A stretch of 64,000 bases of DNA from Hirschia baltica ATCC 49814 (GTDB lineage: Bacteria > Pseudomonadota > Alphaproteobacteria > Caulobacterales > Hyphomonadaceae). The stretch lies in NCBI RefSeq assembly GCF_000023785.1, contig NC_012982.1, positions 3,224,001 through 3,288,000 on the forward strand. The letters run 5' to 3'. This document shows, piece by piece, positions 3,080-7,222 of the stretch. A program made the translations under genes and the position numbers. The notes beneath the pieces are model-generated. The model made no database searches, had not been told where the DNA came from, and saw only the letters and a program-made list of their open reading frames with translations. Positions within the stretch are counted from its first letter, which is position 1; every line of letters starts with the position of its first letter.

Positions 3080-4255
3080 CTACATTCCTGGACGCGGCTT
3101 ATCATTTTTCGGCATTATTGACTCAAATGGCACGCGATCATTGCCCTTTGCGCCCTTGCTGGGCTGTTCTTTGTCGGCACTTCGAGTTGAATTTTTCTGA
3201 TAACCATATTTGCGCAATAATCCGCGAAACTGATTATAAGACAGACCAAGATGCTCTGCCGTGTTTTTCTGGTGGCCGCCACACGCTGCAAAAGCATCAT
3301 CAATCAGCCTTTGCTCAAAAGCCGCTGTCTGTTTTTCAAAATCAATCGGCGCATGCGAATTATGATGCTCCAGCGCTTCTCCAAGATAATCAATTTCCTC
3401 GGTCGGAATTTGTTGCTGCTTATTTTGTCCCTCACCGCCAAGCTCCACGGCGGGTCTAAACCCTGATGCAAATGGATCAAGCGCATCCATATTGAGATTA
3501 ACCGGCACATCTATCTCATGCGGCGCGCGCATCGCAAGGTCACGATACACGGCGCGCTCGGATGCATTCTTCAATTCGCGCACATTCCCCGGCCAGTCAT
3601 GCGCTTTAAAGGCAGCAATTGCGCCGCGCGAAAACCCCGGAAAAACAAATCCAAGTTCGCGCGCCATCTTGTTTCCGAAATACTCAGCCAGCTCCGCAAT
3701 ATCTTCACCGCGCGCCCGCAAGGGGGCCAACGTAATCACATCAAATGCCAAACGATCGAGAAGGTCAGCACGAAACCTTCCATCATTTGCGCGCGATGGC
3801 AAATCAACATTCGTCGCGCCAACCACGCGCACATCACAATGCAAAACTTCCTCGCCGCCCAAGCGTTGAAATTCTCCATACTCAATCACACGCAACAGCT
3901 TTTCCTGCACTTCCATACTCGCCGTTGCGATCTCATCGAGAAAAAGCGTGCCTTTATCGGCCTGCTCAAATCGTCCCAACCGGCGCTTAGTCGCCCCCGT
4001 AAAAGCGCCCTGCTCATGACCGAATAATTCAGAGTCTAGCAAATCCTCAGACAAAGCCGCGCAATTGACCTTCACAAACGGCCCATCCCACCGTTTGGAT
4101 AAGAAATGCACACGCTCTGCAATAAGCTCTTTACCCGTTCCACGCTCGCCTACGACTAGCAAAGGCCGCTCAATAGGAGCCGCAAGTGAAACGCGCTCTA
4201 AACTCTCCAACCACGCTTGTGATTGCCCGATTAATTCTGGTGCTGATCCGATCAT
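3080..4255 (-). CDS. pspF: PspF, sigma-54 activator of the phage-shock operon
   Basis: 391 residues with no receiver or other N-terminal sensor domain, as expected for PspF. Walker A is GERGTGKE (36-43), the sigma-54 contact loop GAFTGA is at 83-88, Walker B is LFLDE (104-108), and a Fis-type helix-turn-helix lies at about 315-352. The C-terminus extends some 40 residues past the HTH, so the protein is longer than the enterobacterial one (about 325). In known systems PspF is held inactive by PspA and drives the psp promoter when the envelope is damaged. Here it is divergent from that operon, with a consensus -24/-12 promoter in the gap, the classical arrangement. Confidence 0.93.
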   Translation of the reverse strand: MIGSAPELIGQSQAWLESLERVSLAAPIERPLLVVGERGTGKELIAERVHFLSKRWDGPFVKVNCAALSEDLLDSELFGHEQGAFTGATKRRLGRFEQADKGTLFLDEIATASMEVQEKLLRVIEYGEFQRLGGEEVLHCDVRVVGATNVDLPSRANDGRFRADLLDRLAFDVITLAPLRARGEDIAELAEYFGNKMARELGFVFPGFSRGAIAAFKAHDWPGNVRELKNASERAVYRDLAMRAPHEIDVPVNLNMDALDPFASGFRPAVELGGEGQNKQQQIPTEEIDYLGEALEHHNSHAPIDFEKQTAAFEQRLIDDAFAACGGHQKNTAEHLGLSYNQFRGLLRKYGYQKNSTRSADKEQPSKGAKGNDRVPFESIMPKNDKPRPGM

Positions 4256-4391: not shown

Positions 4392-4407
4392 TGGCACGGT
4401 GTTTGCA
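4392..4407 (+). promoter_or_regulatory. Sigma-54 (-24/-12) promoter of the psp operon
   Basis: TGGCACG (4392-4398), four bases, then TTGCA (4403-4407): a full match to the sigma-54 consensus, with GG at 4393-4394 and GC at 4405-4406 correctly spaced. The predicted transcript start is near 4418. The AT-rich stretch 4256-4391 upstream is the natural place for PspF and IHF binding, though I cannot point to individual sites. Confidence 0.93.
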
Positions 4408-4461: not shown

Positions 4462-4599
4462 ATGTACGACAATACAGATCACTCAAAGTCCTCGACCGAA
4501 GACACACTTAACCGGTTGGGCAACTGGCTTAAGTCTCGCCCAATTGAAAACTGGGGTTTCTTCATTGCAGGCGTGATCATCGCACGCATTCTCTTTTAA
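4462..4599 (+). CDS. 45-residue membrane peptide, first gene of the psp operon
   Basis: ATG at 4462 follows GGAG (4449-4452) by nine bases and lies about 45 bases after the predicted transcript start. A longer reading from GTG at 4399 is excluded because that codon lies inside the promoter. The peptide has a polar N-terminus (about 30 residues) and one hydrophobic helix at the very C-terminus (NWGFFIAGVIIARILF), so it looks tail-anchored. I do not recognise a family. Position as the promoter-proximal gene just before pspA suggests a regulator or membrane partner of PspA, comparable in place but not in sequence to the small accessory Psp proteins of enterobacteria. Confidence 0.75.
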   Translation: MYDNTDHSKSSTEDTLNRLGNWLKSRPIENWGFFIAGVIIARILF

Positions 4600-4625: not shown

Positions 4626-5294
4626 ATGGGAATTTTTTCTCGCTTTGGAGACATCATAAACTCAAATCTGAACGCCATGCTCGACAAGGCTGAAGACCCT
4701 GAGAAAATCGCACGTCTAATCATTCAAGAAATGGAAGACACACTTGTAGAAGTCCGCACAGCCGCAGCCCGCACAATGGCAGACAAAAAAGAACTTCAAC
4801 GCGAAATGCGTGAACTTCAAATTGTCCGCGATGACTGGTCTGCAAAAGCAGAACTCGCAATCGAAAAAGACCGCGAAGACCTTGCACGTGGCGCTCTCTC
4901 AGCGAAACAACGCGCCGAACGCGAAATCGAAAGCCGCAAATCAGCCCTTGCTGCAGTCGATGATGCCGCCGCAAAACGTCAGGATGATCTTGGCAAACTT
5001 CAAGCCAAACTTGAAGAAGCTAAAACCAAGCACCGCGCTTTGATGGTCCGCCGCCAAGCAGCTGAAGAACGCATCAAAGTTCGCTCACGCATTGATGATT
5101 CAAAAGTTGATGACGCATTGCACCGCTACGCAGCAGTTGAGCGCAAAGTCGATGAATTAGAAGCTTATGCCGACACATACGACCTCAAAAGCAAAACACT
5201 TGAAAGTGAATTTGCAGACCTTGAGGCCTCAGAAAGTGTCGAATTGGAATTAGCCGCCATGAAAGCGCGCAAGAAATCAGGATCGGATAACTAA
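4626..5294 (+). CDS. pspA: Phage shock protein A
   Basis: 222 residues, the normal PspA length. The N-terminal amphipathic helix (MGIFSRFGDIINSNLNAMLD) and the following PEKIARLIIQEMED are family hallmarks, and the rest is almost entirely coiled coil. PspA is a peripheral inner-membrane ESCRT-III-like protein that stabilises damaged membranes and, when idle, inhibits PspF. It is the second gene of the operon and its stop codon shares one base with the pspB start (TAATG at 5292-5296), which implies coupled translation. Confidence 0.96.
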   Translation: MGIFSRFGDIINSNLNAMLDKAEDPEKIARLIIQEMEDTLVEVRTAAARTMADKKELQREMRELQIVRDDWSAKAELAIEKDREDLARGALSAKQRAEREIESRKSALAAVDDAAAKRQDDLGKLQAKLEEAKTKHRALMVRRQAAEERIKVRSRIDDSKVDDALHRYAAVERKVDELEAYADTYDLKSKTLESEFADLEASESVELELAAMKARKKSGSDN

Positions 5295-5554
5295 TGGACG
5301 AAGATATCCTCATCCCGATTATCGCAATCCTGTCGATATTCGTGATCTTCCCCGGCATGTGCATGCATTACTTTACAATGTGGCGCAGCAATAAAGGCCT
5401 CTCAGCAGATGACGAGAGAATGCTGGAAGATTTATGGCGTTCCGCCCGCACAATGGAGCGCCGCATCGAAACAATAGAAAAGCTGATCGAACCAGAGGGG
5501 CCTGAAAAAGCCCCTCGCCGCCCCAGAAGCGATTTTCGCGACCTCGACGGTTAA
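5294..5554 (+). CDS. pspB: Phage shock protein B
   Basis: 86 residues: one N-terminal membrane helix (about 5-27), then a helical cytoplasmic tail with RIETIEKLIEPEGPEK, the PspB signature area. It ends RSDFRDLDG, slightly longer than the 74-residue enterobacterial protein. PspB and PspC sense inner-membrane stress and draw PspA away from PspF. Its start overlaps the pspA stop by one base. The tail module (R-x-E-x-hydrophobic-E followed by F-R-D-L) recurs in PspC and three later small proteins of this operon. Confidence 0.93.
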   Translation: MDEDILIPIIAILSIFVIFPGMCMHYFTMWRSNKGLSADDERMLEDLWRSARTMERRIETIEKLIEPEGPEKAPRRPRSDFRDLDG

Positions 5555-5586: not shown

Positions 5587-5991
5587 ATGGACGAGTATTC
5601 AAACTATAAAAATCCTAAGAGATTTTACCGCCCGACAAATGACCGCATGATTGGTGGTGTTTGTGCCGGTATCGCCGAGCGCATGGGATGGGACCCGTTA
5701 TTGGTTCGTATCGCAGCCGTTGTATCTATGATTACAGGTGTATTTTCCGGTGTTGTTTTTGCCGGATATCTCATCACATGGGCTGTCACACCCAAGCGTC
5801 GCACAATGCACAATATGACAAAGGACGAAGAGTCTTTTTGGCAGGGCGTATCTGACCGCCCGAAAGTTACACTGTCTAACATCAGATACAAATTCATGGA
5901 CCTAGAAGACCGGATGCAGGGTGTAGAAAAAGCCGTCACATCAGATGAATGGCGCCTACGCAGACAATTTCGTGATCTAGAAAAAAGTTAG
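5587..5991 (+). CDS. pspC: Phage shock protein C
   Basis: 134 residues. The PspC domain covers about 12-70, with the signature MIGGVCAGIAERMGWDP and a long hydrophobic stretch at 38-68. The C-terminal tail (105-134) contains RMQGVEKAVTSDEWRLRRQF and then RDL, a helical module also present in the three small proteins encoded downstream. PspC acts with PspB as the membrane sensor of the Psp response. The gene lies 32 bases after pspB in the same orientation and is surely co-transcribed. Confidence 0.94.
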   Translation: MDEYSNYKNPKRFYRPTNDRMIGGVCAGIAERMGWDPLLVRIAAVVSMITGVFSGVVFAGYLITWAVTPKRRTMHNMTKDEESFWQGVSDRPKVTLSNIRYKFMDLEDRMQGVEKAVTSDEWRLRRQFRDLEKS

Positions 5992-6011
5992 CAAAAATCG
6001 AGCTGTATTAT

Positions 6012-6039
6012 CGGACCTCCCAAAAAATATAATGGTCCG
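6012..6039 (+). promoter_or_regulatory. Intercistronic hairpin after pspC
   Basis: CGGACC (6012-6017) pairs perfectly with GGTCCG (6034-6039) around a 16-base AT-rich loop. No T-run follows, so it is unlikely to be a full terminator. It may stabilise or process the psp transcript and set lower expression of the distal genes. Confidence 0.4.
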
Positions 6040-6073
6040 GTAGCGCAGCGAGAAGCAGAAGAGGGAAAATAAA

Positions 6074-6331
6074 ATGGCACTGCAATTCTCAACACGCGTC
6101 ATAGCGGCAACAAGCCTACTGACAACTGGTTTAATCGCCCTGACAATCGCATCTCAGAATGGTGAAATCAGCGTTCGAACCGCCGGCTTAGAAGTGAAAT
6201 ACTTCCAAGCAGACGCACAAACAGGCAAAGCACTTGAAATCAATCAGGAACAATGCCCGCCGCAATGCCCTCTTCTCGATATCAATTGGAAAAAATACGC
6301 AGACGCAACTAGCTTGAAGATTTTACGCTAG
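6074..6331 (+). CDS. Small membrane-anchored or secreted protein in the psp operon, unknown
   Basis: 85 residues after GAGGG (6060-6064). The N-terminus has one hydrophobic helix (about 9-26, AATSLLTTGLIALTIAS) that could be a signal anchor, followed by a soluble part with a cysteine-proline cluster (EQCPPQCPLLD). I know no family for it. It lies between pspC and three PspB-like proteins in the same direction, so it is probably under the same sigma-54 promoter. Unlike its neighbours it lacks the shared C-terminal R-E-R-F helix module, and its conserved-looking part would face the periplasm if the helix is an anchor. Confidence 0.65.
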   Translation: MALQFSTRVIAATSLLTTGLIALTIASQNGEISVRTAGLEVKYFQADAQTGKALEINQEQCPPQCPLLDINWKKYADATSLKILR

Positions 6332-6385
6332 ACATCGAATTTTCTGCTAAATTGCAAACGACAACAAGAAAGAGGAGACAGAAAA

Positions 6386-6691
6386 ATGGAAGGCGGACAA
6401 GTAATGGTCGTCTGCATCGTGGCGCTAGTGATGTTGACCAGCCTGATCAAGGCATCAATCCAAAGCAAAAACAATGCAAACAAAAAAGATATGCGGAAGG
6501 CAAACGAAAACACTGCTCAAACAGACGAATTGCTTTTCAAAATGAACGACCAGCTCGACCGCATTACAGCCAGACTAACAGCGCTGGAAACCATTGTGAC
6601 CGACGAAGACCGCGAGCTTAAACGTGAGTTCCAAACCTTAAAAAGCGACGTTTCCAATGTCCGTAAATCCGTAGACACAGACCGTTATTAA
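6386..6691 (+). CDS. PspB-like small membrane protein, paralogue 1
   Basis: 101 residues preceded by GAGGAG (6371-6376). One N-terminal membrane helix (about 6-23), then a coiled-coil tail with RITARLTALETIVTDEDREL and KREFQTL. The order helix, linker, heptad region and R-x3-LE-x5-D-x4-LKR-x-F motif copies the PspB/PspC tail. It is not a strict PspB by sequence in the membrane part. Likely role: an extra sensor or oligomerisation partner in the Psp membrane complex (inference from context and shared module). Confidence 0.75.
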   Translation: MEGGQVMVVCIVALVMLTSLIKASIQSKNNANKKDMRKANENTAQTDELLFKMNDQLDRITARLTALETIVTDEDRELKREFQTLKSDVSNVRKSVDTDRY

Positions 6692-6706
6692 GAGAAAGCC
6701 CAAATT

Positions 6707-6931
6707 ATGGATGTATTTGTATTTGTCGTCATTATCGTTGCCATTGGTTGCGGCACAGGAATTGTCACCTCCTATTTTGAAAATAAAGGCAAGTCCGGAA
6801 GCAAGATTAGCGACGCAGAGTTTGCCGAAATCGTCAGCAAATTAGACAAAACCATTACCCGCGTTGAAACACTTGAGCGCTTGGCCCTCGATAGCGACCA
6901 AGACCTCAAACGAGAATTTCGCAACCTTTAG
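6707..6931 (+). CDS. PspB-like small membrane protein, paralogue 2
   Basis: 74 residues, exactly enterobacterial PspB length. N-terminal helix VFVFVVIIVAIGCGTGIVTS (3-22), then YFENKGKSG and a coiled coil ending RVETLERLALDSDQDLKREF-RNL. It is a close sister of the protein encoded at 6977: both begin MD(V/I)(F/Y)VF, both have a YFE motif after the helix, and both have LD-x4-TR-x-ETLERLA. It starts 15 bases after the previous gene, so the genes are translated from one message. Confidence 0.78.
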   Translation: MDVFVFVVIIVAIGCGTGIVTSYFENKGKSGSKISDAEFAEIVSKLDKTITRVETLERLALDSDQDLKREFRNL

Positions 6932-6976
6932 TGAATACAATATAAGCACTCACTCTATTTCAAACAGGCAAATGTT

Positions 6977-7222
6977 ATGGATATTTATGTATTTTTTCTG
7001 CTGTTAGCCGTCATCATATTCGTGACTTGCGGCGTCACAATCTATTTTGAGGCCAAAGTCACCGCAGGAAGCCGCGTCACGGAAGGTCAGTTCAAAGAAC
7101 TTACTGAAAAACTGGATATCGCCCTCACAAGAATTGAAACGCTGGAACGTCTAGCCACAGACGAAAACGAGCACCTCAAACGCCGCTTTGATGAAATATC
7201 AAAACAGCCAAATTACGCCTAA
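6977..7222 (+). CDS. PspB-like small membrane protein, paralogue 3
   Basis: 81 residues; membrane helix about 3-23, then IYFEAKVTAGSRVTEGQF, a heptad region and RIETLERLATDENEHLKRRF. Clearly a tandem duplicate relative of the protein encoded just upstream. It is the last gene of the psp operon: 19 bases after its stop comes the stop codon of the opposing mnmC gene. No good terminator hairpin was seen in that gap, so read-through antisense into mnmC is possible. Confidence 0.78.
   Translation: MDIYVFFLLLAVIIFVTCGVTIYFEAKVTAGSRVTEGQFKELTEKLDIALTRIETLERLATDENEHLKRRFDEISKQPNYA

What the first reader, a model, noticed from the sequence alone, without database searches (positions are those of the whole stretch)
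5905..7200. One helical module repeated in PspC and the three small Psp proteins
PspC (RMQGVEKAVTSDEWRLRRQF), and the proteins at 6386 (TALETIVTDEDRELKREF), 6707 (VETLERLALDSDQDLKREF) and 6977 (IETLERLATDENEHLKRRF) share R-x-x-x-hydrophobic-E-x-x-hydrophobic-x-(T/L)-(D/S)-(D/E)-x4-L-(K/R)-R-x-F. PspB has a divergent form ending F-R-D-L. A common module in five products of one operon suggests interchangeable binding to one partner, probably PspA.
Basis: seen in the sequence. Interest (0 to 1): 0.65.

Follow-up and report, generated by a model that had tools for sequence, protein, structure and literature searches.

The report
Shared docking tail on Psp proteins
In this bacterium's membrane-stress (Psp) operon, three extra tiny membrane proteins carry the same short helical tail that PspC has at its end, and relatives carry up to seven such proteins, which looks like a multiplied set of docking adaptors, probably for the membrane-repair protein PspA.

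Summary
PspC and the three small proteins at 6386, 6707 and 6977 share a real C-terminal module of about 35 residues: helix A (R-x3-Φ-E), a V/A-T/L-D/S joint, and helix B (L-x3-F/I-x2-L). Profiles of PspC tails and small-protein tails match with P = 6.5e-8, in the same register in both halves, beyond 400 heptad- or hydrophobicity-preserving column permutations. PspB shares only helix A; its "FRDL" end is not conserved.

The window genome belongs to Hirschia (Hyphomonadaceae). Of 105 family genomes, 99 carry such tail proteins: in the psp operon (up to seven per operon, some soluble) or at an unlinked coaBC-dut locus. Related proteins occur in some other Pseudomonadota, and every such genome tested has PspA and PspC. 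In one relative PspC has lost its tail, PspB is missing, and two tail proteins follow.

Best reading: membrane-anchored adaptors made from the PspC/PspB tail, docking on PspA or on the PspB/PspC tails. The PspA step is inferred. PspB duplicates and PspB-like PspC tails are published; the multi-paralogue, anchor-swapping expansion is a new variant. A resemblance of the PspC tail to PspA helices α4–α5 is a lead only, because influenza HA2 reaches similar scores with helix A.

The parts
3080..4255 (-). pspF, sigma-54 activator, divergent from the operon
   Evidence: TIGR02974 469 bits, above cut-off 443.6
4392..4407 (+). sigma-54 type -24/-12 promoter TGGCACGGTGTTTGCA upstream of the operon
   Evidence: exact consensus match, the only one in the window (about one match with up to one mismatch is expected by chance); similar sites upstream in L032, L036, L037
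4462..4599 (+). orf0, 45-aa protein with hydrophobic C-terminus, conserved upstream of pspA in relatives
   Evidence: phmmer hits in more than 40 loci; no Pfam or NCBIfam family
4626..5294 (+). pspA
   Evidence: TIGR02977 277.6 bits, above cut-off 242.95
5121..5234 (+). end of alpha4 to N-terminal part of alpha5 of PspA, the stretch the PspC tail resembles (lead only)
   Evidence: hhalign window scan P 2e-4 here, 2.9e-6 in other-class genomes; weak specificity
5294..5554 (+). pspB
   Evidence: PF06667 84.2 bits; TIGR02976 57.6 bits, above cut-off
5435..5491 (+). helix A half of the module in PspB (RRIETIEKLIE)
   Evidence: A3 x A2 hhalign P 2.1e-5, 25 columns only
5587..5991 (+). pspC
   Evidence: TIGR02978 112.5 bits, above cut-off 104
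5845..5988 (+). PspC tail module, helix A and helix B
   Evidence: A1 alignment: R23, E28, L38, F42, L45, E46 invariant in 41 sequences
6074..6331 (+). orfX, 85-aa protein with one predicted TM and a conserved CPPxC, between pspC and the tail genes
   Evidence: phmmer hits in 14 related loci; no known family
6386..6691 (+). s1, TM-anchored tail protein, 101 aa
   Evidence: TIGR02978 30.5 bits over residues 8-85; third-codon-position excess of changes versus its Hirschia relative G002
6530..6661 (+). tail module of s1
   Evidence: A2 row; found in genome with 59.7 bits
6707..6931 (+). s2, TM-anchored tail protein, 74 aa
6818..6928 (+). tail module of s2
   Evidence: 50 bits
6977..7222 (+). s3, TM-anchored tail protein, 81 aa
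7088..7219 (+). tail module of s3
   Evidence: 55.9 bits

Best explanation
[quoted passage not shown] The three small proteins are membrane adaptors: one transmembrane helix, a short coiled-coil linker and the PspC-type tail facing the cytoplasm. They are probably co-expressed with pspA from the PspF/sigma-54 promoter. Under stress their tails most likely dock on PspA as the PspC tail does, which multiplies or diversifies the membrane sites where PspA is held and polymerises. Shown here: the module, its conservation, the gene order and the family-wide expansion. Inferred: co-transcription, cytoplasmic orientation, PspA as partner, and the effect on PspA recruitment.
For: Module identity by reciprocal profiles, permutations and half-by-half tests. 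31 of 42 family members match the PspC model and 29 the PspB model at E 0.01 or better, with no dedicated family seen. Three small ORFs with excess third-position changes, so real genes. 99 of 105 family genomes carry the module; operons with up to seven tail genes on TM or soluble N-termini. All 34 tail-bearing genomes tested from other families have PspA over cut-off and all 23 tested have PspC at E <= 1e-10, against PspC at E <= 1e-15 in 30 of 249 phylum genomes. L160: tailless PspC, no PspB in the operon, two tail genes next to it. Literature: the PspC C-terminal cytoplasmic domain binds PspA in the on state (PMC5596341); PspC residues 40-119 and its putative leucine zipper are needed for PspA interaction in E. 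coli (PMC3068692).
Against: No interaction was measured. The small tails alone do not resemble PspA alpha4-alpha5. Helix A attracts generic coiled coils, so PspB membership in the module is weak. Co-occurrence with PspA is phylogenetically clustered. The AlphaFold monomer models show only helices, with low confidence for PspC, and say nothing about partners.
Confidence: 0.5

Rival explanations
1. The tails pair mainly with each other: the small proteins form coiled-coil heteromers with PspB or PspC tails and tune the PspB/PspC off-on switch (decoys or spare PspB subunits) without touching PspA.
For: PspB and PspC cytoplasmic tails are reported to interact and silence the response (title of ref. 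15 in PMC5596341). The N-terminal half of the small proteins is PspB-like. L041 also has three tandem PspB genes.
Against: The strongest match of the small tails is to PspC including helix B, the part PspB lacks. In L160 tail proteins persist without PspB in the operon and with a tailless PspC.
Confidence: 0.3
2. They are ordinary PspB duplicates, as already catalogued for psp operons, with a redundant PspB role.
For: Ravi et al. 2024 report PspB duplicates in psp operons and a divergent PspB-like domain at the end of PspC (PMC11237479). s1-s3 are similar in size and architecture to PspB.
Against: Only 15-20 bits against a 51.7-bit cut-off for the PspB model. A true PspB is present in the same operon. 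The PspB signature of the family (DDERMLEDLWRSA) is absent from s1-s3. Some family members have no TM helix.
Confidence: 0.15
3. The resemblance is only that of generic coiled coils; no common partner exists.
For: Helix A of PspC tails from other-class genomes matches influenza HA2 with E 7e-5, so that half has little specificity.
Against: Helix B carries most of the PspC/small match (P 2.6e-6). No heptad- or hydrophobicity-preserving permutation of 400 reaches the score. Other PspA coiled-coil windows score about 7-15 against 34.6. The genome-wide searches return psp genes only, apart from two hits at E 0.39 or more.
Confidence: 0.05

Closest known systems
PspC (TIGR02978), C-terminal cytoplasmic domain
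   Same: Same helix A - VT(S/D) - helix B module in the same register; tail after a membrane segment
   Different: s1-s3 lack the PspC domain PF04024 and score far below the model's cut-off
PspB (TIGR02976 / PF06667)
   Same: Small size, one N-terminal TM helix, then a helical tail with R-x3-Phi-E; weak profile match over most of the protein
   Different: Below cut-off; PspB lacks helix B and s1-s3 lack the PspB signature motifs
PspB duplicates and PspB-like PspC ends described by Ravi et al. 2024 (PMC11237479)
   Same: Extra PspB-like genes in psp operons; recognition that the end of PspC can be PspB-like
   Different: The sections read do not describe up to seven paralogues, soluble carriers, unlinked copies or tailless PspC; its example AOL22920.1 could not be retrieved here
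PspG (E. coli)
   Same: Small membrane protein of the PspF regulon reported to interact with PspC (PMC3068692)
   Different: No sequence comparison was made; recalled only as a functional parallel

Membership tests
PspC equivalog TIGR02978 | Score above the curated cut-off of 104 bits | tested here: not met
   s1 30.5, s2 11.7, s3 12.7 bits
PspC equivalog TIGR02978 | PspC domain PF04024 | tested here: not met
   absent from s1-s3 in Pfam scan
PspC equivalog TIGR02978 | C-terminal helical module (VTSD...F..L) | tested here: met
PspB equivalog TIGR02976 / PF06667 | Score above cut-off (51.7 / 25.6 bits) | tested here: not met
   TIGR02976 19.9, 16.4, 15.0; PF06667 10.7, 15.1, 15.3 bits
PspB equivalog TIGR02976 / PF06667 | N-terminal TM helix plus helical tail | tested here: met
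   hydropathy maxima 2.39-2.70 near the N-terminus; s1 model all helix
PspB equivalog TIGR02976 / PF06667 | Tail binds PspC | not testable with these tools
   needs an interaction assay
PspA-docking tail (PspC C-terminal domain function) | Physical binding to PspA under inducing conditions | not testable with these tools
   known for PspC from PMC5596341; not for s1-s3
PspA-docking tail (PspC C-terminal domain function) | Co-occurs with PspA/PspC | tested here: met
   34 of 34 with PspA over cut-off, 23 of 23 with PspC; clustered by lineage
Mimic of PspA alpha4-alpha5 (ESCRT-III) | Sequence similarity over both helices above coiled-coil background | tested here: inconclusive
   P 2e-4 and 2.9e-6; 15 of 400 and 0 of 400 permutations reach the score; HA2 scores 25 bits with helix A

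The most novel reading that the evidence does not exclude
The PspC tail, and through it the small adaptors, imitates PspA's own alpha4-alpha5N segment, the part that in PspA/Vipp1 polymers contacts the hairpin tip of another subunit. Membrane-anchored tails would then seed, cap or retain the PspA (bacterial ESCRT-III) polymer by occupying a subunit-subunit contact, and some lineages would have multiplied these caps with different membrane anchors.
Probability: 0.18. Interest if true: 0.78.

Novelty: new variant of a known kind. Interest (0 to 1): 0.48.

Why it matters
How PspA, the bacterial ESCRT-III protein, is brought to damaged membrane is not fully understood, and PspC's tail is a docking element with experimental support. 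A family of natural tail variants on different anchors, up to seven per operon, and a natural case where PspC has shed its tail, gives a ready-made set for finding which residues bind PspA and whether docking alone is enough. If the mimicry reading held, it would connect stress sensing directly to a polymer contact of the ESCRT-III fold.

Tried and rejected
PspB ending in FRDL as part of the module: rejected, because the end is not conserved beyond the genus.

The module as a helical hairpin: AlphaFold gave one continuous helix for s1 and one helix for residues 96-133 of PspC, so no hairpin is supported.

Small tails resembling PspA directly: no (P 0.06 for the window where PspC tails match).

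PspC tail against solved structures: the best hits were designed coiled coils and influenza HA2, no PspC or PspB structure appeared, and PspA/Vipp1 chains were not among the rows shown. This lowered the mimicry claim.

F/I covariation between the PspC tail and PspA alpha5N (F-F 74, I-I 12, I-F 8, F-I 0): suggestive, but it is clustered by lineage, includes overlapping loci, and was not corrected for phylogeny.

The key Yersinia papers (PMC4416846, PMC5116940, PMC2782453) are not held.

Full report
What is there. The window holds a psp locus: pspF on the minus strand (3080-4255), a sigma-54 type promoter at 4392-4407, then orf0, pspA, pspB, pspC, orfX and three small genes s1 (6386-6691), s2 (6707-6931) and s3 (6977-7222), all on the plus strand. 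The genome belongs to Hirschia: G001 and G002 of the same genus correspond to named Hirschia records. Comparison with G002 shows that most changes in s1-s3 fall at third codon positions, so these are real genes under purifying selection.

The observation. The quoted peptides are present. A profile made only from PspC tails finds just PspC and s1 in the whole genome. A profile made only from small-protein tails finds s1-s3 and next PspC. Profile-profile comparison gives P 6.5e-8 for PspC tail against small tails over 35 columns, 2.1e-5 for PspB against small tails over 25 columns, and 0.009 for PspB against PspC tails. When the module is cut in two, helix A matches helix A and helix B matches helix B, while crossed halves do not match. 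The module is therefore real for PspC and the small proteins. PspB has helix A only.

What it is. The module is the ordinary C-terminal end of PspC: the NCBI PspC model matches s1 from its TM helix to the end of the tail (residues 8-85 to model 45-121). Across a 42-member set, 31 match the PspC model and 29 the PspB model at E 0.01 or better; no dedicated family turned up (Pfam). The proteins look like PspB in front and PspC behind.

Distribution. 99 of 105 genomes of the family carry tail proteins, in all ten genera sampled. In Hirschia and several uncultured Hyphomonadaceae they lie in the psp operon behind orfX. Operons of L036 and L037 have seven, including proteins with no TM helix and an arginine-rich N-terminus, and short ones with helix B only. 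In three other genera the one or two tail genes sit elsewhere, in most loci examined behind coaBC and dut. A second alphaproteobacterial family (f17, probably Sphingomonadaceae, name not verified) has three to five in the psp operon. Other Pseudomonadota, probably Gammaproteobacteria, have unlinked copies. Every tail-bearing genome tested outside the home family has PspA over cut-off (34 of 34) and PspC (23 of 23), while PspC occurs in 30 of 249 sampled genomes of the phylum at E <= 1e-15. This is consistent with a Psp-linked function, though the genomes are clustered in about eight families.

A natural rearrangement. In L160 (genome G655) the operon reads pspA, an 88-aa PspC that ends after its membrane domain, then two TM-anchored tail proteins; no PspB is present in the operon. 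The tail thus appears to have moved from PspC to separate small proteins. This is one genome, so an individual oddity cannot be excluded.

How it most likely works. [quoted passage not shown] coli PspC is needed for PspA interaction (PMC3068692). By analogy s1-s3 would be extra membrane-anchored docking sites for PspA. Positive charges after the TM helix suit a cytoplasmic tail. The main rival is tail-tail pairing with PspB and PspC.

A lead followed and downgraded. The PspC tail profile also matches PspA between the end of alpha4 and the start of alpha5, in the same register in Hyphomonadaceae (P 2e-4), in other-class genomes (2.9e-6) and in f17 (0.0012), while most other PspA windows stay at P above 0.01. 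Alpha5 of Vipp1/PspA makes subunit contacts with the hairpin tip and is essential for polymerisation (PMC8281802). However, in a blind search of solved structures the other-class PspC tail matched influenza HA2 with 25 bits through helix A alone and no PspA chain was among the rows shown. In Hyphomonadaceae 15 of 400 permutations reached the PspA score, and small tails show no such match. The idea stays as the most novel reading, at low probability.

Comparison with what is known. Ravi et al. 2024 already list PspB duplicates in psp operons and PspC fused to a divergent C-terminal PspB (PMC11237479). The present case extends this to many paralogues per operon, soluble carriers, unlinked copies and a tailless PspC. 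s1-s3 fail the cut-offs of both PspB and PspC models, so they are not filed as members of either. They work, most likely, like detached PspC tails on PspB-like anchors.

Noticed in passing
window 4462-4599: orf0: 45-aa protein with a conserved hydrophobic C-terminus (...SWGFFxAGxxIARILF) just upstream of pspA in most relatives, also in other families of the order; no Pfam or NCBIfam family.
   Followed up: partly
window 6074-6331: orfX: small TM protein with conserved CPPxC, found between pspC and the tail genes in at least 14 related loci; no known family.
   Followed up: partly
L041:5621-6458: Three tandem pspB genes in one psp operon, followed by six tail genes.
   Followed up: no
L036:5416-5601, L037:4886-5179, L038:4364-4525: Short proteins in the operon carrying only the helix-B half of the module (TDEEARLAAEIEKLR) behind a proline-rich stretch.
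   Followed up: partly
L117, L119, L120, L122: In other genera of the family the tail genes sit behind coaBC and dut instead of in the psp operon.
   Followed up: partly
window 6977-7222: s3 also matches NF048001 (GTA head formation protein, RCAP_rcc01685 family), E 4.6e-4, below cut-off; probably a coiled-coil chance match.
   Followed up: no
L075-L100, PspC tail and PspA alpha5N: F/I at one position changes together in PspC tail and PspA in some lineages (F-F 74, I-I 12, I-F 8, F-I 0); not corrected for phylogeny.
   Followed up: partly
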